Source: Hydrogenophaga sp. 2FB
GTDB lineage: Bacteria > Pseudomonadota > Gammaproteobacteria > Burkholderiales > Burkholderiaceae_C
Assembly (NCBI RefSeq): GCF_005503365.1
Contig: NZ_SCML01000033.1
Location: 1-64,000 of the forward strand
Direction: 5' to 3'
Length of the DNA stretch: 64,000 bases
Under the pieces are notes generated by a model. The model saw nothing but the letters and a program-made list of their open reading frames with translations, was not told the DNA's origin and ran no database searches. Positions within the stretch are counted from its first letter, which is position 1. Each line of letters opens with the position of its first letter. Below, one piece after another: positions 1 to 12,692 of this stretch. The position numbers were made by a program, and so were the translations under genes.

Positions 1-26
1 CCCCCAACCACCTGGAGTACTTCCCC

Positions 27-641
27 ATGCGTATCGAGTTCATCGGCAAAACCAAGGCCACCATCACCGCGATCGACATCCAATCCCTGAAGATGGGCCA
101 GACCGACGTCAAGCCGGCCGTGTGCATCCATTTCAGGATCACCCAGGCCAACAGCACCCTGTCGATGTTCGACAAGAACCTGCTGCGCTTCCTGTTCGAG
201 AAGGGCAACGGCGCGTCCACCCAGCAGGCACTCGAAGGCATCCCGGTGGTGTCCGAGTTCGCGCAACTGACCGAGATCGCGCAGAAGCTCGGCGCCTTCA
301 ACTGGGACGGCGAGCAGACCGGCAGCACCCTGAAGATCTATCAGGGCGTCAGCGGCCATGAAGACATCAAGCTGAGCGACTGCACGGTGCGCAAGCCGAA
401 GATCACGCCCATGGAAGGCGGCGGCGTTGACTACGATTTCCAGGTGTACACGTCCGACGTGGACCAGGAGACGATCGGCGCGCTCGGCGTGCTCAAGTCC
501 CTGACGCGCGACATCGAACTGGAAGCCGCCCAGCCGGTGAGCAACAAGCAGCGCACGATCGACGACGGCAAGGACGAGAAGAAGCTGACGCCGGCTCAAG
601 CGCTGGCCAAGTCGGTGAAGACCGGCGCGGCCACGGTGTAA
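27..641 (+). CDS. Phage protein of unknown function
   Basis: This is a 204-residue soluble protein that I cannot assign to a function. It has no signal peptide or membrane segment and ends in a lysine-rich, low-complexity tail. The ATG at 27 has a weak GGAG about nine bases upstream. The frame also stays open and protein-like to the window edge (residues NHLEYFP precede the Met), so the true start may lie outside and the gene may be partial. It ends two bases before the overlapping methyltransferase starts, which suggests translational coupling in one prophage operon. Position and size fit an early-region phage gene, but that is inference. Confidence 0.6.
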   Translation: MRIEFIGKTKATITAIDIQSLKMGQTDVKPAVCIHFRITQANSTLSMFDKNLLRFLFEKGNGASTQQALEGIPVVSEFAQLTEIAQKLGAFNWDGEQTGSTLKIYQGVSGHEDIKLSDCTVRKPKITPMEGGGVDYDFQVYTSDVDQETIGALGVLKSLTRDIELEAAQPVSNKQRTIDDGKDEKKLTPAQALAKSVKTGAATV

Positions 642-643
642 GC

Positions 644-1960
644 ATGTGGCTCTACACACCATCGAATTCTGTGCCGGCGTCGGAATGCTTGGTGAGGGAC
701 TGCGAGCCGGGCTCGAGTTCCTGGGCATCCCGCATCGCACTGTCTGCTACGTTGAGCGGGAAGCTCACGCAGCCGCAGTCCTGGTCGCGCGCATGGAAGA
801 AGGCTCCCTGGATGCAGCGCCTGTCTGGTCCGACCTTCTCACCTTCGACGCTCGACGCTGGCGTGGATGCCTGGATCTCGTCGTTGCGGGATTCCCGTGC
901 CAAGACCTCAGCGTCGCCGGCCGCCGGGTTGGCCTCGATGGCGCGCGCTCCGGCCTCTTCTTCGACATCCTGGACCACGCCGACGCTTGCGGTGCGACAG
1001 GACTCTTTCTGGAGAACGTCGGCGGCATCTCTTCTGCCACCGCCTCCGTTGTGGACGAAGCCGAAGGCGATCTCGAAGAGCGCGCGGCCGCCCGAGTCCT
1101 GGGAGAACTGGCCGACCGCGGGTGGCATGCGGAATGGCTCACTCTTTCAGCGTCCGACGTGGGCGCCAGCCATGGACGCCTGCGATGGTTCTGCCTGGCA
1201 TGGAGACCTCCTGTGGCAGACGCCGAGGGCCTCCGAGGAAGAGAGTGGCAGCGGCATGAACGGCAGAGGGGAGCCGAAGCTGAAGGGCCAAGCACTGATG
1301 TGGCTGACGCCGGCGGGGATGGCGGGGCTGGACCACACGGGGAAAGCGGGAGCGGGTGGCGAGTTCGCGCAACAGGCAACACGATGGCCAACGCCGATGG
1401 TGGGTATGGGCGACAACTCGCACGGCCAAATCAGCGGGGACTTCCGCCGCAACATGGACTCGATCCTGTCGGAGAACTGGCCGACACCCAACGCGGCGGT
1501 GTTCGAGCCGAAAGCGACTCCACCGGTGATGGAGCACCGCAAGGCGACCGACCCACAGATTGGGCTGGCCGACGTGGCGGTGCACTGCTTCCAGATGAAC
1601 AGCCCGGGGTTGGCCAGGCCAACCCCGGCGAGCCGCGATCACAAGGGCCAGGATCTGCCATCGAGGAACGGCGGCGCGAGCTTGAGCCACGCGACGGAAA
1701 CGGGCGTTTTCTCCCACTCTTCGCACCAGGCCCAGCAGATCCCAGGTGGCCCGGAGTCCTCGCCAGTCACCCCCACCTTGCCCCGGCGCTTGAACCCGCT
1801 TTTCGTGGAGTGGTTGATGGGCTGGCCTTTGCAATGGACGAATGCCGTGCCCCACGCCTCAAGTGCGGCGGCAACGGAGTCGTGGCGCTCTGCGCTGCAA
1901 CAGCATTTGTCGTGCTTGCTCGACGAGCAGGCCTCACCGGTTGAAAGGCTCGCAGCATGA
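644..1960 (+). CDS. Overlapping frame with WPTP repeats, conserved phage type
   Basis: This 438-residue frame covers the methyltransferase gene end to end, shifted by one base. It starts at ATG 644 and its TGA shares the ATGA string with the ATG of the next gene at 1957, as real neighbours in this operon do. Its composition (Ser, Trp, Pro, Thr) is unlike the Arg/His-rich shadow frames elsewhere in the window. It has WQTP, WLTP and two WPTP motifs and a C-terminal RLNPLFVEWLMGWPLQWTN (382-400). I know that motif from the C-termini of phage DNA methylases and from many prophage hypothetical proteins that begin MWLYTPS. No function is known to me. It could be a genuine overprinted gene or a by-product of constrained codons in the methyltransferase. 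I favour a real dual-coding pair but cannot prove expression. Confidence 0.55.
   Translation: MWLYTPSNSVPASECLVRDCEPGSSSWASRIALSATLSGKLTQPQSWSRAWKKAPWMQRLSGPTFSPSTLDAGVDAWISSLRDSRAKTSASPAAGLASMARAPASSSTSWTTPTLAVRQDSFWRTSAASLLPPPPLWTKPKAISKSARPPESWENWPTAGGMRNGSLFQRPTWAPAMDACDGSAWHGDLLWQTPRASEEESGSGMNGRGEPKLKGQALMWLTPAGMAGLDHTGKAGAGGEFAQQATRWPTPMVGMGDNSHGQISGDFRRNMDSILSENWPTPNAAVFEPKATPPVMEHRKATDPQIGLADVAVHCFQMNSPGLARPTPASRDHKGQDLPSRNGGASLSHATETGVFSHSSHQAQQIPGGPESSPVTPTLPRRLNPLFVEWLMGWPLQWTNAVPHASSAAATESWRSALQQHLSCLLDEQASPVERLAA
646..1944 (+). CDS. Phage C5-cytosine DNA methyltransferase
   Basis: This enzyme transfers a methyl group from S-adenosylmethionine to C5 of cytosine in DNA. In a phage it usually protects against host restriction. 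The conserved motifs appear in order in 432 residues: motif I FCAGVGMLGEG (8-18), the catalytic GFPCQDLS with Cys85, ENV (123-125), the HGRLRWF block (176-182) and a C-terminal GGNGVV (from about 408, motif X). Residues about 190-340 are a low-complexity, Gly/Arg-rich target-recognition region with repeated ADA motifs. The start is GTG at 646 inside the string ATGTG, whose ATG opens a second frame at 644. No strong ribosome site is seen, so initiation is probably coupled to the gene ending at 641. The whole gene is overlapped by the 644-1960 frame. Confidence 0.88.
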   Translation: MALHTIEFCAGVGMLGEGLRAGLEFLGIPHRTVCYVEREAHAAAVLVARMEEGSLDAAPVWSDLLTFDARRWRGCLDLVVAGFPCQDLSVAGRRVGLDGARSGLFFDILDHADACGATGLFLENVGGISSATASVVDEAEGDLEERAAARVLGELADRGWHAEWLTLSASDVGASHGRLRWFCLAWRPPVADAEGLRGREWQRHERQRGAEAEGPSTDVADAGGDGGAGPHGESGSGWRVRATGNTMANADGGYGRQLARPNQRGLPPQHGLDPVGELADTQRGGVRAESDSTGDGAPQGDRPTDWAGRRGGALLPDEQPGVGQANPGEPRSQGPGSAIEERRRELEPRDGNGRFLPLFAPGPADPRWPGVLASHPHLAPALEPAFRGVVDGLAFAMDECRAPRLKCGGNGVVALCAATAFVVLARRAGLTG

Positions 1961-2421
1961 AGACCGCCCACCGTCGCGCCTCGCACGCCAAGCGCGAGCT
2001 GCCCAAGTTCTGGCAACCGACCATCACCGCCGACCAGGTGGCCACGTGCCAGCTGGCGCATTGGGATCTGATCGACCGCTTCACCGGTGGCCGGGCCACG
2101 CAGGGCGACCTGCTGGACTGGATCGAGACGGGCCTGACCTACAGCGAGCTGATGCGCCTGCTGGAGGCCGACGGCACGCCCTTCACCGAAGAGGCCAAAG
2201 CCGCGATCGCCGAGCAGCTGGAGTGCTACGAGGCGGTGCTGCAGCGGTTCCACACCAGCGGCCGGGTGGGCTTCAACGGTGCCCAGCTCCTGACCGCGCG
2301 CGCCGCTGCCGAGGTGATGGACCAACTCATTGAAATGGATCGCTTCGGCTTCGCGGTACGCGCGGCGGAGTGGTCGAACGCGCAGATGGCGCGCCTCCAA
2401 CTCTCGAAAGGAACGACGTGA
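1957..2421 (+). CDS. Phage hypothetical protein, helical
   Basis: This is a 154-residue protein I cannot assign. It looks alpha-helical and soluble. A basic N-terminus (about 1-20) is followed by acidic amphipathic stretches. Its start ATG has an AAAGG ribosome site eight to ten bases upstream and overlaps the stop of the 644-1960 frame (ATGA). Its own stop overlaps the GTG start of the J-domain gene (GTGA). Placement in the early phage operon suggests a small accessory or regulatory protein, but nothing in the sequence shows a catalytic or DNA-binding motif. Confidence 0.7.
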   Translation: MKTAHRRASHAKRELPKFWQPTITADQVATCQLAHWDLIDRFTGGRATQGDLLDWIETGLTYSELMRLLEADGTPFTEEAKAAIAEQLECYEAVLQRFHTSGRVGFNGAQLLTARAAAEVMDQLIEMDRFGFAVRAAEWSNAQMARLQLSKGTT

Positions 2422-2990
2422 CTGTCAACGCATTCCCCCTCTCATGGCCCGCGCAGTTCCCGCGTGCGAAGTTCCGCGAAGGCGGCAAGTTCAAGACCGC
2501 GCTGCCGGCCGCCATCAAGAATGTGCAGACCAGCCTGGCCGGCTTCGCGCGCGACTCTGGCAAGAAGCTCGAAGGCCTCGTGATCTCCAGCAACGTCTCG
2601 CTGGGCGACAACGCACCGGCGGATCCAGGTGTGTCGGTGTGGTTCACCTGGGACGGCCTGCAGGTGTGTATCCCAGTAGACCGGTACCACTCGGTGGCGT
2701 CGAATCTGCAGGCGATCCACCACATCCTCGAAGCGCGCCGCGTGGAACTGCGCCACGGCACTCTGGCCCTGGTGCGCGCGACCTTCACCGGCTTCAAGGC
2801 GCTGCCCGCGCCGGCCGGCAAATCGTGGTGGGAGGTGCTGAAGGTGCCACGCGATGCGAAGCGCGAGGACGTGAAGGCGGCATACCGGCGCATGGCCAGC
2901 GCTGCACACCCAGACAAGGGCGGCACCGAGCAAGCCATGGCCGAGCTCAACGTCGCCCAGGAACAGGCCCTCAAGGAATGCACCTCATGA
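2418..2990 (+). CDS. Phage protein with C-terminal J domain
   Basis: The last 55 residues of this 190-residue protein form a DnaJ-type J domain (about 136-190). It starts SWWEVLKVP and has the diagnostic HPD at 164-166 followed by KGG. J domains stimulate the ATPase of Hsp70 (DnaK), so this phage protein probably recruits the host chaperone. The first 130 residues are unassigned and may bind the client. The start is GTG at 2418, overlapping the upstream stop, with GAAAGGA about ten bases upstream. A longer frame opens at 2370 but runs into the previous gene. Placing the J domain at the C-terminus is the reverse of canonical DnaJ and typical of phage or specialised J proteins. Confidence 0.8.
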   Translation: MTVNAFPLSWPAQFPRAKFREGGKFKTALPAAIKNVQTSLAGFARDSGKKLEGLVISSNVSLGDNAPADPGVSVWFTWDGLQVCIPVDRYHSVASNLQAIHHILEARRVELRHGTLALVRATFTGFKALPAPAGKSWWEVLKVPRDAKREDVKAAYRRMASAAHPDKGGTEQAMAELNVAQEQALKECTS

Positions 2991-3355
2991 GCGACCATGT
3001 TCCAGATCACGAATTGCCGGACGAACTGCCGGAGATCTTCAAAGGCCGAAAGGTGATGGCGGTCCACTACAACTACGGCCGCGACGGAGGCGGCGGCATC
3101 TACCGGTGGCACGGCGCGGACGGACGCGCTTGGCCCATTCAGGAGCAGTACGACACCCGAAGGCCAAAGCCGGCCAAGGGTAAGCAGCCCGCCTTCGAAC
3201 CGTCGAAGACCGGCGCCGTGATCATCGACATCAGCCAGCCGGATGGCTTCTACGGCGAGGTGGTGCCCGGCTACCGCGAGCTTCGCGACGTCTGGAAAAA
3301 ATGGCGCGCCGAGAAGAAGGCCGTCCAGCTTCAAGAGGAAAACGGCAATGGCTAA
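2987..3355 (+). CDS. Phage hypothetical protein
   Basis: This is an acidic-to-basic soluble protein of 122 residues with no family I can name. A Gly-rich turn (DGGGG, near residue 34) and a short Lys-rich segment (about 60-68) are visible, and it ends in a charged helix. The ATG at 2987 overlaps the stop of the J-domain gene (ATGA), which is why it is preferred over an in-frame ATG three codons earlier. The 3' end overlaps the next gene by eight bases. Confidence 0.65.
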   Translation: MSDHVPDHELPDELPEIFKGRKVMAVHYNYGRDGGGGIYRWHGADGRAWPIQEQYDTRRPKPAKGKQPAFEPSKTGAVIIDISQPDGFYGEVVPGYRELRDVWKKWRAEKKAVQLQEENGNG

Positions 3356-3572
3356 GCCCAAGCACATCGACACGCGCGCCCCGAAGGGCGAGTACATCAT
3401 CGCCTTCGACACCGACGCGGTGAAGGCCACGGGGATCATCACCGGGGTCAAGGTGACGTTGGAGCCAGCGACCCTCGGCCCGGACGAGTCGGCCCGTGTC
3501 GACCTCACGGAGCACCCGCTGTACCCGCACCTGCGGCAGTACGTGCTTTCCAACCTGAGGAACACGCGATGA
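3348..3572 (+). CDS. Small phage hypothetical protein
   Basis: This 74-residue protein has no recognised family. It appears to be a single small beta-rich domain followed by a C-terminal helix. The start ATG lies inside the end of the preceding gene, with AAGAGGAA as a good ribosome site eight to sixteen bases upstream. Its stop overlaps the next start (ATGA at 3569). The tight overlaps on both sides support it as a real member of the phage operon. Confidence 0.65.
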   Translation: MAKPKHIDTRAPKGEYIIAFDTDAVKATGIITGVKVTLEPATLGPDESARVDLTEHPLYPHLRQYVLSNLRNTR

Positions 3573-4228
3573 AAGAGCGCCCAATATTGTTTCAGGGCGC
3601 GATGGTGCGCGCCATCCTGGACGGGTCGAAGACCCAGACGCGGCGCATCGTGAAGCCGCAGCCTGACAGCCGGCCCGGTATGAACTGCACGCGGCTGATC
3701 TTCAAGGACCGCAAGGGCGCGCCGCTGCTCGATGAAGCGCTTGAGGCCCCTGAGCCACGTGTCTATCGTTCGCTCTGTCCCTACGGCGTGCCAGGCGATC
3801 AACTTTGGGTGAGGGAATCCCATTGGTGGTTCAAGGATGAGCCCGACCATGAGACCGGCTACTACCCGCCAAAGCTGACCGCCGAGGACGTGGTGTACCG
3901 CGCTGACGGCGACGATGGCCGCAAGGTGTGGAGGCCGTCAATCCACATGCCGCGCTGGGCCTGCCGCCTGGTGCTGGAGATCACCGGCGTGCGCGTCGAG
4001 CGCCTGCAGGACATCAGCGAGGCCGATGCGCAGGCCGAGGGAACCCCGTGCTACGTGTGCGGCGAGCCCATGACCGGGCTCAGCGAGGACGATTGCCACT
4101 GCTTCCACCGCAAGGCCATGCCCAGCGACTACCGCGCGCTGTGGCAATCCATCAACGGCGCCAGCTCATGGGATGCGAACCCATGGGTGTGGGTGGTTTC
4201 GTTTCGGAGGGTCGATGGCCAACCTTGA
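3569..4228 (+). CDS. ASCH-like phage protein
   Basis: This 219-residue protein opens with MKERPILFQGAMVRAILDG and then KTQTRR. That N-terminus is shared by a large group of phage proteins with an ASCH/PUA-like fold, thought to bind nucleic acid or modified nucleotides. LWVRES (about 87) and the closing WVWVVSFRRV match the same group. Cysteines in CYVCGEPM and CHCFH (about 170-190) suggest a small metal-binding insert. The biochemical role is not established. The start overlaps the upstream stop by ATGA, and the 3' end overlaps the next gene by 14 bases. Confidence 0.75.
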   Translation: MKERPILFQGAMVRAILDGSKTQTRRIVKPQPDSRPGMNCTRLIFKDRKGAPLLDEALEAPEPRVYRSLCPYGVPGDQLWVRESHWWFKDEPDHETGYYPPKLTAEDVVYRADGDDGRKVWRPSIHMPRWACRLVLEITGVRVERLQDISEADAQAEGTPCYVCGEPMTGLSEDDCHCFHRKAMPSDYRALWQSINGASSWDANPWVWVVSFRRVDGQP

Positions 4229-4460
4229 AGCCCGCGCGCGCTGGCACCTGGCGATCGGCTACCCGCCGCCCGGCGAGGAAGAGCCAGCGCTGGACGATGA
4301 CGACTACGAAGGCGAGTACCTGGGCAGCATCACATGCTGGAGTTGCGGCGGCGAGGGCACCCGCGTCGACTGCATGGATGACCTGTGCCACGGACAAGGC
4401 TTCTGCATGCACGGCGACAACCGCATGTGCGGGGTTTGCTACGGGGAGGGCATGCTTTGA
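4215..4460 (+). CDS. Cysteine-rich Zn-binding phage protein
   Basis: This is a small acidic protein (81 residues) whose second half has eight cysteines. They include CWSCGGEG and CGVCYGEG, which match the CxxCxGxG units of the DnaJ zinc-finger domain. The start ATG at 4215 follows a strong CGGAGG ribosome site, so it is preferred over upstream in-frame starts. It is five genes downstream of the J-domain protein in the same operon. One can imagine the two act together as split DnaJ modules, but CxxCxGxG pairs also occur in unrelated phage zinc ribbons. Confidence 0.7.
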   Translation: MANLEARARWHLAIGYPPPGEEEPALDDDDYEGEYLGSITCWSCGGEGTRVDCMDDLCHGQGFCMHGDNRMCGVCYGEGML

Positions 4461-4491
4461 CCACCAACACACAACCACAAGAGAGATCAAC

Positions 4492-4722
4492 ATGAACTTC
4501 ACACAACCGAAAACCGTGAACCTTGGCGCTCGCTCTGTCGTCGCATGCTCAGATCGCGACGGCCAGGCCAAGTACCAGCTCTGGCTTGGGCTCGATGGCC
4601 AGCCCGATGGGTTCGGGACTTTCAAGCTCGTCGAGGGCCAAGAGCCCGAGCGACTTGCTGATGACCATCCGGCGGCCTTGTGGCTGCAGGGCGGCGTGAA
4701 ACCTCAGGAGAGCCAGCCATGA
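4492..4722 (+). CDS. Small phage hypothetical protein
   Basis: This is a 76-residue soluble protein of unknown function, with a likely beta-hairpin core (about 10-45) and no motif I recognise. The ATG is preceded by AAGAGAGAT. It is separated from the Zn-binding gene by 31 bases, the only clear gap in this operon, and its stop overlaps the next start (ATGA at 4719). Confidence 0.6.
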   Translation: MNFTQPKTVNLGARSVVACSDRDGQAKYQLWLGLDGQPDGFGTFKLVEGQEPERLADDHPAALWLQGGVKPQESQP

Positions 4723-4979
4723 ACATTTCCACGTCCCCGCCCCTGCTCTACCGGATCAACGTCGCCGAGGCAAAGCTGGGCGTCTCACGATCGACCATCT
4801 ACCGGTTGATCGAGGCAGGCACGCTGAACCGCGTGAAAATCGGGAAACGGGCCTGTGGCGTTACAGCCGCAAGCGTCCATGCCATGATCTCGGACAAGCC
4901 GGCCAGCGATTCGATTTCGGGTAGCCAGCCGGGTAGCCAGCCCGCCAAAACCACCCGACTGACCGTCGTAAGTAGTTGA
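4719..4979 (+). CDS. Excisionase-like HTH protein
   Basis: This is an 86-residue DNA-binding protein of the MerR/excisionase (AlpA-like) winged-helix type. Residues about 8-50 contain the typical AEAKLGVSRSTIYRLIEAG helix-turn-helix followed by a beta wing (LNRVKIGKRA). Such proteins direct excision of integrated elements or regulate their early genes. The C-terminal tail has a Gly-Ser-Gln-Pro repeat encoded by a 12-base tandem repeat. It is the last gene of the element, next to the chromosomal xth gene, but no integrase is present nearby. Confidence 0.75.
   Translation: MNISTSPPLLYRINVAEAKLGVSRSTIYRLIEAGTLNRVKIGKRACGVTAASVHAMISDKPASDSISGSQPGSQPAKTTRLTVVSS
4918..4941 (+). repeat. Two-unit 12-base tandem repeat
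   Basis: Two perfect copies of CGGGTAGCCAGC stand in tandem near the 3' end of the excisionase-like gene and encode the GSQP repeat. They lie 60 bases from the chromosomal xth gene. They may be chance coding slippage or arm-type recombinase sites. Confidence 0.6.
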
Positions 4980-5001
4980 TTAAAAACAGATTTCCATACA
5001 C

Positions 5002-5778
5002 ATGAAACTTGCCACCTGGAACATCAACTCCCTCTCCGTGCGCCTGCCCCAGGTGCTCGACTGGCTCGCCGCCAACCCCGTCGATGCGCTGGGTTTGCAG
5101 GAGCTCAAGCTGGTCGACGAGAAATTCCCGTACGACGCCTTGAAGGAAGCCGGGTATCACGCGGCCGTCTTCGGCCAGAAAACCTACAACGGCGTCGCCA
5201 TCCTGAGCCGCACACCCGTGACCGACGTGGTGCGCAACATCCCGACGCACGCCGACGACCAGTCGCGCGTGATCGCGGGCACGCTAGACACGCCCGAAGG
5301 TCCGCTGCGCTTGGTGAACTGCTATTTCGTGAACGGGCAGGCACCGGGCACGGACAAGTTCGCCTACAAGATGCGCTGGCTGGAAGCGCTGCATCGCTGG
5401 CTCGGCGAGGAGCTGAAAGTGCATTCGCGCCTGGTGCTGTTGGGCGACTTCAACGTCGCGCCGGAGGACCGGGATTCGTTCGACCCCGTCGGCTTGAAGG
5501 ACACCATCCATCACACCGTGGAAGAGCGCGCGCACTTTCAGGAACTGATCAAGCTGGGCCTCACCGATGCCTACCGCATGTTCGAGCAGCCCGAGAAAAG
5601 CTACTCGTGGTGGGACTACCGCATGCTCGGTTTTCAGAAGAATCGCGGGCTGCGCATCGACCACATTCTCGTGAGCGAAGCGCTGCGCGGCACGGTGACA
5701 GCGTGCCAGATCGACCGCCTGCCGCGCAAGAACCCACAGCCCAGCGACCACGCGCCGGTGGTGGTCACGCTGGGGTAA
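5002..5778 (+). CDS. xth: Exodeoxyribonuclease III
   Basis: This Mg-dependent AP endonuclease and 3'-5' exonuclease acts in base-excision repair. The protein is 258 residues, the family's usual length. It shows the EEP-nuclease fold motifs: TWNINS at 5-10, LQELKL with Glu34, the GDFNVAP loop near 150 and the C-terminal SDHAPVV with the catalytic His. It is the first chromosomal gene beyond the mobile element and is convergent with ntrC. The next 85 bases hold no gene. Confidence 0.95.
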   Translation: MKLATWNINSLSVRLPQVLDWLAANPVDALGLQELKLVDEKFPYDALKEAGYHAAVFGQKTYNGVAILSRTPVTDVVRNIPTHADDQSRVIAGTLDTPEGPLRLVNCYFVNGQAPGTDKFAYKMRWLEALHRWLGEELKVHSRLVLLGDFNVAPEDRDSFDPVGLKDTIHHTVEERAHFQELIKLGLTDAYRMFEQPEKSYSWWDYRMLGFQKNRGLRIDHILVSEALRGTVTACQIDRLPRKNPQPSDHAPVVVTLG

Positions 5779-5863
5779 CCGATCCAGCGCTGGGCGGCCC
5801 CAAGCCGGATCAGCCCCCCGAGGGCAGCGACCCGCATCAGCGGCGGAGCGTGGGGGCCATTCC

Positions 5864-7387
5864 CTACTCCAGGTTCAGTTCCTGAATCTTGCGGGTGATG
5901 GTGTTGCGCCCGATGCCGAGCTTGTGCGCGGCCTCGATGCGGCGACCGCGCGTGTTGGCCAGCGCGGTCTGGATCAGGCGGGTTTCGAAGCGGCGGGTCA
6001 ACACATCCCACACATCGGTCCGGCCTTCTTCGAGCAACCCCAGGGCCTCGGCCTGCAAGCCGGTTTCCCATGCTGGCGCCGTGGCCCCCTCCAATTCGGG
6101 AAACGCCGCGACCGCTTCGACATGGGGCGCAGGTTCCGGCATGGTGGCCACCGTGGGCGGCATGCTGAAGGCGGTCGGCGATGGCGCTGCGATCGGAGCC
6201 GCCTCGGGTGCGGGCGTTCGCGCCGTCGAAAGAACTTCAGGCGGCAGGTCCTTGAGCTCGATCACCTGGGCCGGCGCCATCACGGTAAGCCAGTGGCACA
6301 CGTTCTCGAGCTGCCGCACGTTGCCGGGAAAGTCGAAACTGCCCAGCAACTTCAAGGCCGCATCGGAAATGCGCTTGGGCTCCACACCCAACTGCTTGGC
6401 GCTTTGCTGCAGGAAAAAGCGCGTGAGCATGGGCACGTCTTCGCGCCGCTCGCGCAGCGCCGGCAGGCGCAGGCGGATCACGTTGAGGCGGTGGAACAAG
6501 TCCTCGCGGAACACGCCTTCCTTGACGCGCTGCTCCAGGTTCTGGTGCGTGGCCGCGATCACGCGCACGTTGGCGCGCACCGCGCTGTGCCCGCCCACGC
6601 GGTAGAAGTGGCCATCGGACAGCACGCGCAACAAGCGCGTCTGCAAGTCAAACGGCATATCGCCAATTTCGTCGAGGAACAACGTGCCGCCATCGGCCTG
6701 CTCGAAGCGGCCGCGGCGCATGGTCTGCGCGCCGGTGAAGGCTCCACGCTCGTGACCGAACAGCTCACTCTCCAGCAAGTCCTTCGGAATGGCTGCGGTG
6801 TTGATCGCCACGAACGGCCCGGCCGAACGCGGTGAGTGCTTGTGCAGCGCGCGCGCCACCAGTTCTTTGCCCGATCCTGATTCGCCGGTGATCAGCACCG
6901 TGACCTGGCTTTGGCTCAGGCGGCCGATGGCGCGGAACACGTCCTGCATGGCCGGCGCCTGGCCGAGCATTTCGGGCGCAGCGCTCATGCGCTCTTCCGC
7001 CACTTCCTCGCGCAGACTCTCGTCCACCGCACGGCGGATCAGCTCGACGGCCTTGGGCAAATCGAACGGCTTGGGCAGGTATTCGAAGGCGCCCCCCTGA
7101 AAGGCCGACACGGCGCTGTCCAGGTCGGAGAACGCGGTCATGATGATGACCGGCAAGCCGGGCAGTTTTTCCTTGACCTTCTCCAGCAGGTCCAGCCCGG
7201 AGCCACCGGGCATGCGGATGTCGCTCACCAGGATTTGCGGGCCCTCCTGGTCGGGCGTGTCGATCAAGGCTTTGAGGACATCCTGCGGATTGGTGAAACT
7301 GCGCGTGGGCAGGTTCTCGCGCAGCAGCGCCTTTTCGAGCACAAAGCGGATCGACTGATCGTCGTCCACTATCCAGATCGGCTTCAT
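5864..7387 (-). CDS. ntrC: Nitrogen response regulator NtrC
   Basis: This sigma-54-dependent activator turns on genes for nitrogen assimilation when phosphorylated by NtrB. Its 507 residues contain a receiver domain with phospho-acceptor Asp56 in SDIRMP and a AAA+ domain with Walker A GESGSGKE and the sigma-54 contact loop GAFTGA. A variable Pro/Ala-rich linker follows, then a C-terminal Fis-type helix-turn-helix ([16 protein letters not shown]). It is slightly longer than the enteric protein because of the linker. It lies 47 bases downstream of ntrB on the same strand and probably binds the TGC-N11-GCA sites upstream of glnA. Confidence 0.96.
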
Positions 7388-7434
7388 TGAGTTGTCTTCC
7401 CTTCGTGTGGCGCGGCGTTCGTGTCAGTGACTGG

Positions 7435-8577
7435 CTAGGGCAACGGAATCAAGATCTTGAAGTCCGTCTGGTTCGGCACGCTCTCACACTCGATCAAGCC
7501 ATGGTGCTGCTGAACAAAAGTCTGTGCCAGCGTCAGCCCCAGGCCGGACCCACCATCGCGCCCCGACACCAGCGGGAAAAAGATGCGGTCCTTGATCGAG
7601 TCTGGAACGCCAGGCCCGTTGTCGATCACATGCAATTCCAGTGCCAGCCGATAGCGCTGCTTGCCAAACGTTACCTGTCGGCCAATGCGCGTGCGAAACA
7701 CGATGCGCGCATCGCCCGCGGCAATGCGTTGACCCAGCGCCTGCGCCGCGTTGTGCGCGATGTTGAGCACCGCCTGAATGAGCTGCTCGCGATCGCCGCG
7801 AAACTCGGGGATGGACGTGTCGTAGTCGCGCACGACCTTCAAGCCCTTGGGGAATTCGGCCAGGATCAGCGAGCGCACACGCTCACAAACTTCATGGATG
7901 TTCACGTCACCCACCACATGCGGGCGGCGGTGCGGCGCGAGCAGTCGGTCCACCAAGGATTGAAGCCGGTCGGCCTCATGGATGATGACCTGCGTGTATT
8001 CGATCAGCTCACGCGACTCCAGGTCCATCTGCAGCAGTTGCGCCGCGCCGCGGATGCCGCCGAGCGGGTTCTTGATCTCGTGCGCCAGGTTGCGGATGAG
8101 CTCCTTGTTCGCCTGAGCCTGGTCGATCAGGCGCTCCTCGCGCTCCTGCCGCGCCTGCTGCTCCAGCGGCAACAACTCCACGATCACTTCACCCGGGTTG
8201 TCCGTCTGCGCGACCACCACGTGCACGGGCAATGTGTCGTGGTTCAGCCGCTTGAGCCAGGCGTCATAGCGCAAGGCGGCGAACTGGTTGCCGCTCGCGC
8301 CTTGCAAAGCGCTCTCCAACTGCGCGGGTTCGGTGAAGCAGGTCTGCAACATGGAGCCCGCGATGCTGCGGCGGGACATGCCCAGTGCATCCTCCAAAGC
8401 CGCATTGGCAAAGAGCACACGGCCTTGTGGATCGACGACGGCCACCAGGGTCGCCAGCAGGTCGAGCGCCTGGAACTGCGATGGCGCGAAAGATTTGCGC
8501 GTTTCGACGGGGCCGTTGGGCTGAGCAGCGGCGTGCTCGGCAGCGGAATGGGGTGAGGGAGCGTTGGGCTTTTTCAA
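7435..8577 (-). CDS. ntrB: Nitrogen sensor kinase NtrB
   Basis: This cytoplasmic two-component histidine kinase and phosphatase controls NtrC under signals from the PII protein. The 380 residues hold an N-terminal PAS domain (about 40-125), the H-box NLAHEIKNP with His166, and a C-terminal ATPase domain with an N-box (NIAHNAAQAL), DNGPGVP and GSGLGL. There is no membrane segment, as expected for NtrB. The gene is five bases from the upstream secreted-protein gene and directly precedes ntrC, so the two are cotranscribed. Confidence 0.96.
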   Translation of the reverse strand: MKKPNAPSPHSAAEHAAAQPNGPVETRKSFAPSQFQALDLLATLVAVVDPQGRVLFANAALEDALGMSRRSIAGSMLQTCFTEPAQLESALQGASGNQFAALRYDAWLKRLNHDTLPVHVVVAQTDNPGEVIVELLPLEQQARQEREERLIDQAQANKELIRNLAHEIKNPLGGIRGAAQLLQMDLESRELIEYTQVIIHEADRLQSLVDRLLAPHRRPHVVGDVNIHEVCERVRSLILAEFPKGLKVVRDYDTSIPEFRGDREQLIQAVLNIAHNAAQALGQRIAAGDARIVFRTRIGRQVTFGKQRYRLALELHVIDNGPGVPDSIKDRIFFPLVSGRDGGSGLGLTLAQTFVQQHHGLIECESVPNQTDFKILIPLP

Positions 8578-8582
8578 GCCAC

Positions 8583-9110
8583 TTATTTTGCGGTAGAACC
8601 GACCGCGTTGGCGGAACCCGGCAAGCGGCTCAGTTCGCGCTGAAGGCCTGCGACATCGCTTTCGGCGCGCGCCACGGCCGCCTTGAGTTCGGCCACGCGA
8701 TCCAGGTAACGCTGGTAGTTGCGCGATTCAATGCCCTGTTTCTCGGGCTCGCCATTGGCGTACTCCTTGCGCGCCTGGGCGAGGCGCTCTTCGGCCTTGC
8801 GCATCTCGGCTTCAAGAATGGCCCGAGCGTCGCTGTCGCGCGCGCGCTGCGCAGCCGGGTCAACACGGTCGTTGCCACCGCTGCTGCGGGCGGAGGCCAC
8901 AGGGGTGCTGCTGCGCGCGGCCGTGGGCTTGGTGCCCTCGATGATGGTGATGTTGCCGCCGTCCATCACCGTGCAGCCCTTGGCCTTGGCCACCGCGGGG
9001 TCGTTGGTGTACTCGTTGCCGCAGCGGTAGATACGCGCCTGGGCATGCACCTGCAAAACGCACAAGGCCAGGGCAGCAACCGCCAGTGACCGGATCGTGA
9101 GGAAAGGCAT
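8583..9110 (-). CDS. Secreted DUF4124-like protein between glnA and ntrB
   Basis: This is a 175-residue exported protein of unknown function. Residues 1-23 are a signal peptide ending in VHAQA. A short IYRCGNEYTND segment like DUF4124 domains follows, then a Ser/Ala-rich linker and a C-terminal charged coiled coil (about 95-165). The ATG at 9110 is preferred over an upstream in-frame ATG (9131) because it starts the signal peptide directly. Its place between glnA and ntrB is common in Comamonadaceae to my knowledge, but no role in nitrogen control is known. Confidence 0.75.
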   Translation of the reverse strand: MPFLTIRSLAVAALALCVLQVHAQARIYRCGNEYTNDPAVAKAKGCTVMDGGNITIIEGTKPTAARSSTPVASARSSGGNDRVDPAAQRARDSDARAILEAEMRKAEERLAQARKEYANGEPEKQGIESRNYQRYLDRVAELKAAVARAESDVAGLQRELSRLPGSANAVGSTAK

Positions 9111-9250
9111 CGGGTTCAAGGTGAGATCCATCCAGGGGGCATTTCGATAGGGGTGCCAACGCTCGAAAAAGCGAATTTCAGTATGACCGAAAAGCCCCGG
9201 AAAAGTGCCATGTCGGCACCCGAACGGTGGCGATTGACCGCCCGATCAAC

Positions 9251-9276
9251 AAAAAAGGGCCGCTTGCGCGGCCCCT
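9251..9276 (-). terminator. Rho-independent terminator of glnA
   Basis: A seven-base-pair stem (GGGCCGC/GCGGCCC) with a four-base loop is followed on the minus strand by six T residues. It lies 45 bases after the glnA stop and separates glnA from the ntrBC group, so the latter needs readthrough or its own promoter. Confidence 0.85.
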
Positions 9277-9320
9277 TTGGGCAAGTCTGCAAAGGCAGCC
9301 CGGCCATGCCGGGCACACCA

Positions 9321-10736
9321 TCACAGGCTGTAGTACATGTCGAATTCAACCGGGTGCGGCGCCATGCGGAAACGCGTGACTTCACCCATCTTGAGTTCGA
9401 TGTAGGCGTCGAGCATGGAATCGGTGAACACACCGCCCTTGGTCAGGAAGCTTCGGTCCTTGTCGAGGTACTCCAGCGCCTGGTCAAGGCTGTGGCACAC
9501 GGTCGGCACCAACTTGTCTTCTTCCGGCGGCAGGTGGTACAGATCCTTGGTGGCGGCTTCGCCAGGATGGATCTTGTTTTCCACGCCGTCCAGGCCGGCC
9601 ATCATCAGCGCCGAGAAACACAGGTACGGGTTGGCCGAAGGATCGGGGAAACGCGCTTCGATGCGGCGGCCCTTGGGATTGGCCACATACGGAATGCGGA
9701 TCGAGGCCGAGCGGTTGCGGGCCGAGTAGGCCAGCTTCACCGGGGCTTCGAAGCCAGGCACCAGGCGCTTGTACGAGTTCGTGCCGGGGTTGGTGATGGC
9801 GTTGAGCGCACGGGCGTGCTTGATGATGCCGCCCACGTAGTACAGCGCGAAATCGCTCAGGCCGGCATAGCCGTCGCCTGCGAAGAGGTTCTTGCCGTCT
9901 TTCCAGATCGACTGGTGCACGTGCATGCCGCTGCCGTTGTCGCCGGCGTACGGCTTGGGCATGAAGGTCGCGGTCTTGCCGTAGGCGTTGGCGACGTTCC
10001 ACACCACGTACTTGAGCACCTGCGTCCAGTCGGCGCGCTCGACCAGCGTGCTGAAACGCGTGCCGATTTCGTTCTGGCCAGCACCCGCCACTTCGTGGTG
10101 GAACACTTCAACAGGAATGCCCAGCGATTCGAGGATCAGGGACATTTCGGCGCGCATGTCTTGCGTGCTGTCGACCGGGGGCACGGGGAAGTAGCCGCCC
10201 TTGACGGTGGGACGGTGGCCGCGGTTGCCGCCTTCGAGCTTGGCGCCGCTGTTCCAGGGTGCTTCGTACTCTTCAATCTCGCACATCACGCGACCGGGTT
10301 CGTTGCTCCAGCGCACGCCGTCGAAGATGAAGAATTCGGGTTCCGGTCCGAAGAAGGCGGTGTCGCCCAGGCCAGAGGCCTTCAGGTAGGCTTCGGCGCG
10401 CTTGGCGATGGAGCGCGGGTCACGGTCGTAGGCCTTGCCGTCGCCGGGTTCGATCACGTCGCACTGCAGGAACAGCGTGGTTTCTTCGAAGAAAGGATCG
10501 ATGTTGGCGGTGTTCGGGTCGGGCATGAGCTGCATGTCCGAGGCTTCGATGCCCTTCCAGCCAGCCACCGAAGAACCGTCGAACGCATGGCCCGAGCTGA
10601 ACTTGTCTTCGTCGAAGTGAGACACAGGCACGGTGACGTGCTGCTCCTTGCCCCGGGTGTCTGTGAAACGGAAGTCAACGAATTTCACTTCGTTGTCTTT
10701 CACCATTTGCATCACGTCTGCGACGGTCTTGGCCAT
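9321..10736 (-). CDS. glnA: Glutamine synthetase type I
   Basis: GlnA makes glutamine from glutamate, ammonia and ATP and works as a dodecamer. The 471-residue protein matches GSI-beta throughout. It has NRSASIRIP, the active-site [12 protein letters not shown] region and, near residue 400, [10 protein letters not shown] with the tyrosine that GlnE adenylylates to silence the enzyme. The start is ATG 10736 with AGGAG eight bases upstream; a TTG just before it is ignored. Upstream lie a sigma-54 promoter and NtrC-type sites, so expression should rise on nitrogen limitation. Confidence 0.97.
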
Positions 10737-10790
10737 CAAAAATACTCCTGTAGCTGGGTGAGTGAAAACTGAAATCGACTCGGGTGATAA

Positions 10791-10805
10791 GCAGAATTTG
10801 TGCCA
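10791..10805 (-). promoter_or_regulatory. Sigma-54 promoter of glnA
   Basis: The minus strand reads TGGCAC-N5-CTGC, with the required GG-N10-GC spacing and one mismatch to the TGGCAC-N5-TTGC consensus. Transcription would start near 10779, about 40 bases before the glnA start codon. NtrC-type sites lie about 155-185 bases upstream. Confidence 0.8.
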
Positions 10806-10960
10806 CAGGATGGTTCACGCGCCTGCAAACGGATCACCGACGAAACGGTCGGCGGCGATTATGGCGCAGGCAGCGCGCCATAAAGGTTCGGCGCAGGACT
10901 TCTTGCCCCGCGATGGCCCTTGGCAGCACGAAGTTGCCCTGTCTCAACGCCCCAATTCAG

Positions 10961-10990
10961 TGCGCGCCCTGGATGCACCAAATTGATGCA
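10961..10990. promoter_or_regulatory. Two overlapping NtrC-type sites
   Basis: TGCACCAAATTGATGCA (10974-10990) matches the NtrC consensus TGCACC-N5-GGTGCA with one change. A second, weaker TGC-N11-GCA (10961-10977) overlaps it. The position upstream of the glnA sigma-54 promoter is the usual enhancer arrangement. Binding is inferred. Confidence 0.7.
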
Positions 10991-10992
10991 TA

Positions 10993-11808
10993 TTAAGGCC
11001 GCACCATTTCGGGGCCCAATCGGGCACCATATGCCGCCAGCCCCTCGAGCAACTGGGGATACGCCGCGCTCACCGCCTCGGCAGCGCCCTTGACGCCCAG
11101 TTCGATGTGGCGGCCAAACTCGGGATGGTCCACGCTGGGCAAGCTGAACACCTTGACCGGGTGATCGCGCTCGATCCGCTCCATCAGCGGCGTCAGCAGC
11201 GCTTCCATCGCGCCGAACACGATCACCGAGCGCTCCTGCCAAGTGCCTTGGCGATGGAAAGCCGCGTATTGCGTGTCCAGCACACCTTCGATCATGGGCC
11301 AGGCCATGACGGGAAACCCGGGCACGAAATGCACCTGCCCGCCACCCGCGCCATCGCACGTGAAGCCCGGTATGCGGTTGTAGGGGTTGGGGATGATGCG
11401 GGCGCCCATCGGAAACACCCCCATGTTGAAGCGGTGCACGTTGTCGGCACGCTCGGCATCGAACACCTCGCCGCGCTCGGCTGCCGTCTCGCGCATGCGG
11501 GCTTCAATCAGCAGCTTTGCTTCAGGGTGCAATGCCAGGTCCACACCCAAAGCCGCCGCAGCGCATTGGCGGGTGTGGTCGTCTGGCGTGGCGCCAATGC
11601 CACCGCAGCAAAACACGGCATCGCCTCCGGCAAAGGCTTCGCGCAGCGCAGCCGTGATGCGCTCGCGATCGTCGCCCACCAGCCGCATCCAGGACAGGGA
11701 GAGCCCCCGTTGCGCCAACATCTCGATCACTTTGGGCAAATGCTTGTCGCTGCGCTTGCCGGAAAGAATTTCATCGCCGACGATGATCAGGCCGAAGTCT
11801 GGCGTCAT
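10993..11808 (-). CDS. CinA-like molybdopterin-binding domain protein
   Basis: This 271-residue protein consists of a MoCF-biosynthesis fold like the N-terminal half of CinA. It starts FGLIIVGDEILSGK and has CGGIGATPDDHTRQ and an N-P-Y-N-R-I-P-G-F segment. It lacks the C-terminal nicotinamide-nucleotide amidohydrolase domain of full CinA, as do many proteobacterial homologues. The function is uncertain; FAD or ADP-ribose pyrophosphatase activity has been reported for relatives. The start overlaps the stop of the EI24 gene, suggesting a two-gene operon. Confidence 0.85.
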   Translation of the reverse strand: MTPDFGLIIVGDEILSGKRSDKHLPKVIEMLAQRGLSLSWMRLVGDDRERITAALREAFAGGDAVFCCGGIGATPDDHTRQCAAAALGVDLALHPEAKLLIEARMRETAAERGEVFDAERADNVHRFNMGVFPMGARIIPNPYNRIPGFTCDGAGGGQVHFVPGFPVMAWPMIEGVLDTQYAAFHRQGTWQERSVIVFGAMEALLTPLMERIERDHPVKVFSLPSVDHPEFGRHIELGVKGAAEAVSAAYPQLLEGLAAYGARLGPEMVRP

Positions 11809-12692
11809 GGTTGCACGGGTGGCTGGTTGAGAGAGGGTCCGGCGGCGGACGGTTCAAGCGCCTCGACCACAGGTGCTGCGACCTGCGCGTCAGGGGGCGT
11901 ATGCGCCCGCAGGCGCTGCAGCATCGCGAGCGTGAAGTGCGCGAACCAGAGGGACGCGAAGGCGAACACCAGGGTGTAGATCCAGATCGCCACCGGGATC
12001 AACAAGGGAGCCAAGGCGATGAACATGGCACCCGATGCCCACAGCAGGCTGGGCGCCGCACCCAGATAGCCACAGAGCACACCCATGAGCAGCAAGCTGC
12101 CGCGGTGACGCCGCACGATGGACCTGCGCTCCTCGGCGCTGGCGTGCGAAGCAAGCGCGTCGAAGGCAAACACGCGGTAGGTCAACCAACCCCAGATCAG
12201 GGGCGGCAGGATCAGCACCAGGGGTGGCACCAGCCACAAAGGCATGGACACCACCAGCGCCACGATCGCCAGCAGCGTGGAACCCAGCGGCCACAACACG
12301 CTGGCCAACAGCGTGCCGCCCCGCTTGCGTTCCAGGCTAGGGAAGCGCCGCTGCGCCACCAGGTCGACCATGAAGGGCGTCATGAACATGGCGACCAGCA
12401 GCAGGCACAACAGCACGATGACCGGCGTCGCCATCACCAGCACCAGCAGCGGTGCAAACACGGTACGAAGCGAGCCCAGACCTATCCGCTCCAGCCACCC
12501 CAGAAACGCCTGCAGCAGGTCAAACGCGTCCAGCCAGGAAGCCACAGCGGTCACCGCGCCTTCCCAGAAAAAGTAGCCCAGGCCAAACGACAGCAGGACC
12601 ATCAGGATGAGCGGCAAGAAAGACAACGCGATCACGCGCGGATGCACGCAATACGCGACGGCACGCCAGAAAGAATCGAACAACTGCGACAT
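11805..12692 (-). CDS. EI24-domain (CysZ-like) membrane protein
   Basis: This 295-residue inner-membrane protein has an EI24 domain. Hydrophobic segments are clear at about 18-43, 70-110, 140-175 and 200-250. A Pro/Ala-rich cytoplasmic tail (about 265-295) follows. Family members include the sulfate transporter CysZ, but sequence alone does not assign sulfate here. It overlaps the downstream CinA-like gene by four bases and is divergent from the hydrolase at 12725, with only 32 bases between, so promoters must overlap the coding ends. Confidence 0.82.
   Translation of the reverse strand: MSQLFDSFWRAVAYCVHPRVIALSFLPLILMVLLSFGLGYFFWEGAVTAVASWLDAFDLLQAFLGWLERIGLGSLRTVFAPLLVLVMATPVIVLLCLLLVAMFMTPFMVDLVAQRRFPSLERKRGGTLLASVLWPLGSTLLAIVALVVSMPLWLVPPLVLILPPLIWGWLTYRVFAFDALASHASAEERRSIVRRHRGSLLLMGVLCGYLGAAPSLLWASGAMFIALAPLLIPVAIWIYTLVFAFASLWFAHFTLAMLQRLRAHTPPDAQVAAPVVEALEPSAAGPSLNQPPVQP

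What the first reader, a model, noticed from the sequence alone, without database searches (positions are those of the whole stretch)
644..1960. A methyltransferase gene overprinted along its full length by a second conserved-looking gene
The two frames start two bases apart in the string ATGTG, and both are open for about 1.3 kb. The 646 frame has a complete set of C5-methyltransferase motifs, including the final GGNGVV, so it needs no frameshift. The 644 frame has WPTP repeats and RLNPLFVEWLMGWP, a motif I know from phage methylase C-termini and from many prophage hypothetical proteins starting MWLYTPS. Its stop overlaps the next start by ATGA, as its neighbours do. Long overlaps of two conserved proteins are rare in bacteria. 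If both are made, a phage may encode the methyltransferase and an unknown partner from one stretch of DNA.
Basis: partly seen in the sequence, partly recalled or inferred. Interest (0 to 1): 0.85.

Follow-up and report, generated by a model that had tools for sequence, protein, structure and literature searches.

The report
One methyltransferase, two overlapping reading frames
A phage stretch of 1.3 kb appears to encode both halves of one DNA-methylating enzyme at once, read in two overlapping frames from almost the same start point, and relatives in many bacteria and phages keep both frames open.

Summary
Both frames are real: f0 (646-1944, GTG, 432 aa) and f1 (644-1960, ATG, 438 aa). In this gene alone the openness could be chance; in the family it is not. 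In 131 relatives found by f0 at 38% identity or more, f1 has 12 stops across motifs I-VIII against 280 expected from synonymous shuffles; 331 neighbouring ORFs show 2163 against 2193. In the linker of 158 loci f0 has 37 stops against 465. The f1 ATG sits +4, -2 or -5 nt from an f0 start in 105 of 122 loci. My reading: a two-subunit C5 cytosine methyltransferase. f0 is the large domain (motifs I-VIII and X, no IX); f1 is the small domain, W-x-TP cassettes in the recognition position plus motif IX (RRLNPLFVEWLMGWP). It works like M.EcoHK31I, but the recognition-type region is in f1. Cassettes are shuffled between relatives; some relatives have poly-G tracts at frame switches. The first half of f1 is kept open but only weakly conserved. 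Expression, assembly and specificity are untested. Annotators of a Paenibacillus phage already noted an 'internal gene'.

The parts
646..1944 (+). f0 (alpha): C5 cytosine methyltransferase large domain, motifs I-VIII and X, GTG start, 432 aa
   Evidence: PF00145 E 2e-21 over residues 4-188; phrog_29583 E 2e-117 and phrog_363 E 1e-35 over residues 5-423; below the NCBIfam dcm cut-off, 61.7 of 100.65 bits; AF2 ten-residue blocks mostly above 80 for residues 1-190, below 50 over most of 218-338 and 382-397; Foldseek to M.HhaI E 9e-12, 185 columns
644..1960 (+). f1 (beta): overlapping frame, ATG start, 438 aa; cassette region plus motif IX
   Evidence: phrog_1008 'DNA methyltransferase' E 2e-18 over residues 151-408; f1 kept free of stops in relatives
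644..648 (+). double start ATGTG: ATG of f1 and GTG of f0, 2 nt apart
   Evidence: sequence; spacing +4, -2 or -5 in 105 of 122 f0-selected loci, f2 control 0 of 122
667..693 (+). f0 motif I (FCAGVGMLG)
895..912 (+). f0 motif IV with catalytic Cys (PCQDLS)
   Evidence: C85 and Q86 invariant in 86 sequences
1012..1020 (+). f0 motif VI (ENV)
   Evidence: N124 invariant, E123 nearly so
1162..1188 (+). f0 motif VIII (GASHGRLRW)
   Evidence: R178 and R180 invariant
1127..1138 (+). f1 MRNG stretch, overlapping the f0 motif VIII zone
   Evidence: synonymous-site conservation x1.51 at f0 residues 151-170; predicted hairpin at f1 160-169
1214..1783 (+). f1 W-x-TP cassettes (five, M-F-.-.-P in the code), read in f0 as a linker predicted disordered
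   Evidence: substitutions peak at f1 codon position 3; cassette clusters; GC at f1 position 3 is 0.83 over 1201-1715
1784..1828 (+). f1 motif IX (RRLNPLFVEWLMGWP), dual-coded with f0 residues about 380-395
   Evidence: synonymous third-base identity 0.83 against 0.34 expected at f0 residues 371-390; L383, N384, P385, F387, L391, M392, G393, W394, P395 invariant in 13 close sequences
1867..1884 (+). f0 motif X (GGNGVV)
   Evidence: G409, N410, G411, V412 invariant in 13 close sequences; AF2 blocks 68 (401-410) and 93-96 (411-430)

Best explanation
The stretch is one C5 cytosine methyltransferase encoded as two subunits in overlapping frames. f0 makes the large, catalytic domain (motifs I-VIII, then a disordered linker, then motif X). 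f1 makes the small domain: a string of W-x-TP cassettes in the place of the target recognition region, followed by motif IX. Ribosomes binding at one site probably start at either ATG 644 (f1) or GTG 646 (f0), giving both subunits from one message; these would assemble into an active enzyme, as the two polypeptides of M.EcoHK31I do. Shown by comparison: both frames are kept open by selection; the start pair is conserved; constraint moves from f0 to f1 and then to both; motif IX is in f1 and motif X in f0. Inferred: that both proteins are made, that they bind each other, that the cassettes recognise DNA, and that the phage uses the enzyme to mark its DNA against restriction.
For: f1 stops over motifs I-VIII: 12 observed, 279.6 expected, 125 of 131 f0-selected loci with none (13.9 expected), f2 894 against 740. 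De-replicated to 40 loci: 9 against 79.7, f2 216 against 215.5. Neighbouring ORFs: 2163 against 2193 in 331. f0 stops in the linker: 37 against 464.5 in 158 loci (93 of them f0-selected: 9 against 211.1), f2 689 against 632. Double start in 106 of 122 loci, f2 0 of 122; the f0 Asn codon that creates the f1 ATG is AAT in 95 of 97 loci with f0 NE(L/G) near the start. Mismatch by f0 codon position 1/2/3: 0.205/0.141/0.419 over I-VII, 0.325/0.127/0.163 in the linker, 0.233/0.106/0.211 at IX/X. Synonymous-site conservation peaks over f1 motif IX. The f0 model lacks a small domain. In seven actinobacterial relatives an LSPRFVEWMMGLP-type stretch lies in f0 just before motif X, and this part of L182 hits phrog_1008 (E 1e-39), the family that the window's f1 hits.
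Against: No expression data. Single-gene openness is not significant. In the closest f0-selected relatives (55% identity or more, 16 loci) f2 is also below expectation, 53 against 88.4, though f1 is 1 against 34.9. Below 38% identity the depletion weakens: 46 against 108.4 in 37 loci. Some relatives lack the full overlap: the f1 N zone has stops in actinophages L087, L092 and L093 and in low-GC phages L283 and L287, and f0 is interrupted in the linker of 8 of 158 loci. The AF2 model of f1 is poor (mean pLDDT 55.7, pTM 0.27) and has no fold match at E 0.001. No Pfam family matches f1, and Pfam does not reach motif IX in two actinophage C-terminal ORFs or in L199. The 86-row alignments were picked for a motif IX pattern in f1 and a motif X pattern in f0, and the hhalign match was cut with the same pattern, so these are partly circular. 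DNA recognition by the cassettes is inferred from position only. Of 267 loci, 82 gave no motif IX by the pattern; three of those that I then read (L042, L125, L206) do have it in f1.
Confidence: 0.77

Rival explanations
1. A programmed ribosomal frameshift near motif VIII carries ribosomes from f0 into f1, giving one fused chain (I-VIII, cassettes, IX) beside the unshifted f0 chain that ends with motif X.
For: In phage loci L087, L092 and L093 the C-terminal part is a separate overlapping ORF in f1, and their f1 is closed upstream, which would suit a shift or an internal start; the cassettes lie where a shifted chain would continue.
Against: In window-type loci f1 is kept stop-free upstream of any such shift and has its own conserved ATG at the f0 start (AAT 95 of 97). 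Neither is needed for a shift. No slippery site was looked for.
Confidence: 0.12
2. f1 is a separate protein with its own job (for example an anti-restriction or regulatory factor) that shares DNA with a methyltransferase and has taken over its linker.
For: The first half of f1 is open in most relatives and mildly conserved; residues 21-90 are predicted largely helical at block pLDDT 61-84.
Against: f1 carries the one motif that f0 lacks, in the right order. One-frame relatives have the same motif inside the methyltransferase. In actinophages L087, L092 and L093, IX and X sit together in f1.
Confidence: 0.07
3. The second frame is a by-product of GC-rich codon usage and is not a gene.
For: The N-terminal half of f1 is by eye rich in S, P, A and T, as a passive reading would be; in this single gene P(0 stops) is 0.06; f2 is also somewhat depleted in the closest relatives.
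Against: Stop depletion against codon-preserving shuffles with f2 and neighbouring-gene controls; phages of 46-49% GC (L283, L286, L287, L291) also keep f1 open over the cassettes and motif IX; the codon-position pattern switches to f1 in the linker.
Confidence: 0.02

Closest known systems
M.EcoHK31I (two-polypeptide C5 methyltransferase, YGGCCR)
   Same: Larger subunit with motifs I-VIII and X, motif IX on a smaller second polypeptide (PMC3404938, passage seen). That the smaller one is encoded in another frame inside the larger gene is recalled (Lee, Kam and Shaw 1995, not held).
   Different: PMC3404938 places the predicted recognition domain of M.EcoHK31I in the larger subunit; here the f0 linker is unconstrained and the cassettes are in f1. 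Here f1 spans the whole of f0 from a shared start and is 438 aa.
M.AquI
   Same: Natural two-subunit split of a C5 methyltransferase (PMC3404938, passage).
   Different: Its small subunit holds IX and X. In the window X stays in f0; phage loci L087, L092 and L093 are AquI-like in this respect.
Paenibacillus larvae phage Shelly gp55/gp56
   Same: Annotated as a DNA-cytosine methyltransferase with a 'g55 internal gene' also called DNA methyltransferase, in the same relative frame.
   Different: The internal gene starts 184 nt inside gp55, not at a shared start.
Multispecific phage methyltransferases (SPbeta, phi3T type; recalled)
   Same: Several exchangeable recognition units in tandem between motifs VIII and IX (recalled).
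   Different: There they are in one frame; here the cassettes are in another frame and their function is untested.
Hidden HNH endonuclease in phage methylase (ShiLan domain, PMC11855218; abstract and passages)
   Same: A second frame inside a phage methylase gene.
   Different: That is a mobile insertion; here f1 has no HNH match and carries a motif of the enzyme itself.

Membership tests
C5 cytosine methyltransferase (f0) | Motif I, catalytic PCQ, ENV, motif VIII arginines, motif X | tested here: met
   PF00145; conserved residues; fold. Below the NCBIfam dcm cut-off
C5 cytosine methyltransferase (f0) | Own target recognition region and motif IX in the same chain | tested here: not met
   Linker unconstrained in f0 and predicted disordered; motif IX is in f1
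M.EcoHK31I type | I-VIII and X on the larger subunit, IX on the smaller | tested here: met
   Window. 156 of 267 loci with an f0 hit passed the pattern filter
M.EcoHK31I type | Predicted recognition domain in the larger subunit (PMC3404938) | tested here: not met
   Substitution pattern in the linker follows f1, not f0
M.EcoHK31I type | Both polypeptides needed for methylation | not testable with these tools
   -
M.AquI type | IX and X both on the smaller subunit | tested here: not met
   X is in f0 in the window
Multispecific phage methyltransferase | Tandem exchangeable recognition units between VIII and IX | tested here: inconclusive
   Tandem and shuffled; recognition not testable
Hidden HNH in methylase (ShiLan type) | HNH endonuclease in the other frame | tested here: not met
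   No HNH family for f1 in Pfam or PHROGs

The most novel reading that the evidence does not exclude
Phages and prophages of several phyla share one of the longest same-strand full-length overlaps known: a catalytic subunit and a specificity subunit written over each other from one ribosome site. The specificity frame is a string of swappable cassettes, each of which must stay open in both frames, and in some lineages poly-G tracts switch how the halves are joined. The result would be multispecific, reassortable and sometimes phase-variable phage DNA methylation.
Probability: 0.45. Interest if true: 0.88.

Novelty: new variant of a known kind. Interest (0 to 1): 0.78.

Why it matters
Long overlaps in which both frames are conserved are rare in bacteria and hard to prove. 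Here the proof by comparison is strong, the split follows the domain border of a well-known enzyme, and it would explain 'hypothetical' phage proteins starting MWLYTPS or MSWLFSQ (that these are common in databases is recalled). It offers a testable system for how two proteins co-evolve on one stretch of DNA, and for how phages may change methylation specificity by cassette exchange.

Tried and rejected
Chance openness from GC-rich codon usage: rejected by synonymous shuffles with two controls. Hidden HNH endonuclease: no family match. Fold comparison of f1: no hit at E 0.001 in BFVD, best E 0.97, with a low-confidence model, so uninformative. Pfam on two actinophage C-terminal ORFs to place motif IX independently: no match. 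Solved structures by sequence: none for f1 at E 10, M.HhaI for f0 residues 77-153. Relatives in the host's lineage: 26 of 197 genomes matched f0, the window's own included; the other 25 only at 28-50% identity over part of f0, so no orthologue was found there. Burkholderia phage KL1/AH2 paper: passages seen, not about this arrangement. What I saw of papers: PMC3404938, PMC6456624, PMC3439449, PMC12707154 and PMC3483164 as passages, PMC11855218 as abstract and passages; Lee 1995 not held. Ten paper searches showed, among the papers listed, none whose title describes this dual-frame family; some searches listed only 20 of 22, 105 and 35, and the library holds open-licence papers only.

Full report
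What is there. Between 644 and 1960 two frames of the same strand are open. f0 starts at GTG 646 and ends at TGA 1942-1944 (432 aa); f1 starts at ATG 644 and ends at TGA 1958-1960 (438 aa), overlapping the next ATG as ATGA. f0 is a C5 cytosine methyltransferase (PF00145 E 2e-21, phrog_29583 E 2e-117), though below the NCBIfam dcm cut-off. f1 matches phrog_1008, 'DNA methyltransferase' (E 2e-18, residues 151-408), and no Pfam family.

More than chance? In this gene alone, no: shuffling synonymous codons gives 0 f1 stops with P 0.06 over the first 187 codons, and 0 f0 stops with P 0.14 over the linker. In the family, yes. I collected relatives by f1 (best 80 of 218) and, to avoid bias, by f0 (phage records, genomes). 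In the 131 f0-selected loci at 38% identity or more, f1 has 12 stops across motifs I-VIII against 279.6 expected; 125 have none against 13.9 expected; f2 has 894 against 740. Against this stand two points from the same call: in the 16 closest f0-selected loci f2 is also low (53 against 88.4, with f1 at 1 against 34.9), and below 38% identity the effect weakens (46 against 108.4 in 37 loci). In 40 de-replicated loci the figures are 9 against 79.7, with f2 216 against 215.5. In 331 neighbouring ORFs of 150 loci, the same frame has 2163 against 2193. In the linker, keeping the f1 protein, f0 has 37 stops against 464.5 in 158 loci, 150 of them with none (17.7 expected), with f2 689 against 632; the 93 f0-selected ones give 9 against 211.1. 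109 of the 267 loci had been left out beforehand: 98 without the motif IX pattern in f1, 7 with a short linker, 4 with a short f0 match.

The start. In 106 of 122 f0-selected loci (38% identity or more) an f1 ATG with at least 100 open codons lies within 20 nt of an f0 start codon; for f2 the count is 0 of 122. The f1 ATG lies +4 from the f0 start in 81 loci, -2 in 13, -5 in 11 and +10 in 1; the f0 start codon varies (ATG 54, GTG 38, TTG 14). In the commonest form the f1 ATG arises from an f0 Asn codon, which is AAT in 95 and AAC in 2 of the loci with NE(L/G) near the start. This points to two initiations from one ribosome site. A loose Shine-Dalgarno four-mer precedes the f1 ATG in 82 of 106 (no control); in the window none is obvious. 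Not all relatives share this: in Paenibacillus phage Shelly and Lacticaseibacillus phage R9.1 (L283, L287) the early f1 has stops and the ORF starts further in, and the f1 N zone of actinophages L087, L092 and L093 has stops.

Where each frame is constrained. Mismatches between related genes fall by f0 codon position 1/2/3 as 0.205/0.141/0.419 over motifs I-VII, 0.240/0.127/0.376 at VIII, 0.325/0.127/0.163 in the linker and 0.233/0.106/0.211 at IX/X (many overlapping pairs, so not independent). So f0 is constrained first, f1 in the linker, and both at the end. In 2557 distant pairs, synonymous third bases of f0 agree 2.45 times as often as expected at residues 371-390 (f1 motif IX), 1.80 times at 391-410, 1.51 times at 151-170 (f1 MRNG), 1.08 to 1.30 times elsewhere in the first 187 residues, and 0.99 times at 411-432. 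The first half of f1 is thus kept open and only mildly conserved; AF2 nevertheless gives it helices at block pLDDT 61 to 84 in residues 21-90.

What the two proteins are. The AF2 model of f0 is mostly confident for I-VIII and for the end of motif X, below 50 over most of 218-338 and at 382-397, and Foldseek's first hit is M.HhaI over 185 columns. f0 therefore looks like a large domain without its small domain. f1 holds RRLNPLFVEWLMGWP, whose L383, N384, P385, F387, L391, M392, G393, W394 and P395 are invariant in 13 close sequences; the larger set of 86 was picked with a motif pattern, so only residues outside that pattern, such as N384, add to this. Seven actinobacterial relatives (L182, L183, L185, L189, L192, L199, L200) have LSPRFVEWMMGLP-type sequence in f0 just before motif X, and this part of L182 hits phrog_1008. 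So the f1 stretch is motif IX of this methyltransferase lineage. In actinophages L087, L092 and L093, IX and X are together in a second, overlapping ORF in f1. In the loci of each layout that I read, the PTP cassettes are in f1.

How widespread. Of 267 loci with an f0 match, the pattern puts motif IX in f1 in 171, in f0 in 10, in the third frame in 4, and finds none in 82. Three of the latter that I read have it in f1, and 156 loci passed the looser filter. By record title these include Proteobacteria, Myxococcus, and MAGs labelled Acidobacteria, Chloroflexi, Armatimonadia and Verrucomicrobia; phage hosts include Synechococcus and Acinetobacter.

Cassettes. In 38 close genes (some near-identical) I cut 151 pieces at W-x-TP-like borders; 23 clusters recur, in different orders: C-A-D, A-B-D, G-I-A-B-D, C-A-B-I-E, C-J-B-E and others. 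This is cassette shuffling. By position, between VIII and IX, they are the recognition region; that they read DNA is inference.

Comparison with the known. M.EcoHK31I has motifs I-VIII and X in its larger subunit and IX in the smaller (PMC3404938, passage); that the small subunit lies in another frame is recalled. The window works like it. It differs in the place of the recognition region, in the full-length overlap and in the shared start. I do not file it as a strict member because one described feature was tested and not met. Annotators of Paenibacillus phage Shelly already wrote 'g55 internal gene'. Ten searches of an open-licence library (named under Tried and rejected) listed no paper whose title describes the family.

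Context. The window begins inside a phage-like region; downstream lie a DnaJ-domain protein (phrog_9210), an AlpA-like regulator at 4680-4979 and then an exonuclease III-like gene at 5002 that looks like host DNA. No restriction endonuclease family matched the seven neighbouring ORFs that I scanned, so an orphan, protective methyltransferase is the simplest role (inference).

Noticed in passing
L011 4115, L014 3955, L019 4050, L020 3868, L021 3615, L022 3864, L084 3690: Poly-G tracts of 7-10 in seven close relatives in which motifs IX and X have moved to another frame; each tract ends 0-29 nt before the stop of a frame that breaks there. 18 poly-G tracts of 7 or more in 174,358 bases of 191 genes against 18 in 852,440 flanking bases; L084 is not in that set. 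Looks like phase variation by slippage; assembly error is not excluded. Close relatives with a tract but in phase: L007, L008, L127, L004/L207 (one contig). The window gene has no homopolymer of 6 or more.
   Followed up: partly
L182, L183, L185, L189, L192, L199, L200: Actinobacterial relatives with I-VIII, IX and X all in f0; in L182 and L199, the two read in full, PTP cassettes are still in f1.
   Followed up: partly
L087, L092, L093: Actinophage methylases as two overlapping ORFs, the second holding PTP cassettes, IX and X in f1.
   Followed up: partly
L086 1947-3031: Mycobacterium phage GigiOuiOui: motifs I-IV, VI-VIII and IX-X lie in three different frames, IX-X being +1 to VIII.
   Followed up: no
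L228 3266: Relative (viral contig) with IX in f0 and X in the third frame, without a poly-G tract.
   Followed up: no
L054, L059, L061, L066, L073: Relatives with motif X in the f0 frame but f0 interrupted in the linker.
   Followed up: no
L283 816-1853 and 1000-1704: Paenibacillus phage Shelly record annotates the overlap as an internal gene.
   Followed up: partly
window 4680-5775: AlpA/HTH_17-like regulator followed by an exonuclease III-like gene; possible prophage edge; no tRNA found in 1-12000.
   Followed up: no
window 2418-2990: Phage protein of phrog_9210 with a C-terminal DnaJ domain.
   Followed up: no
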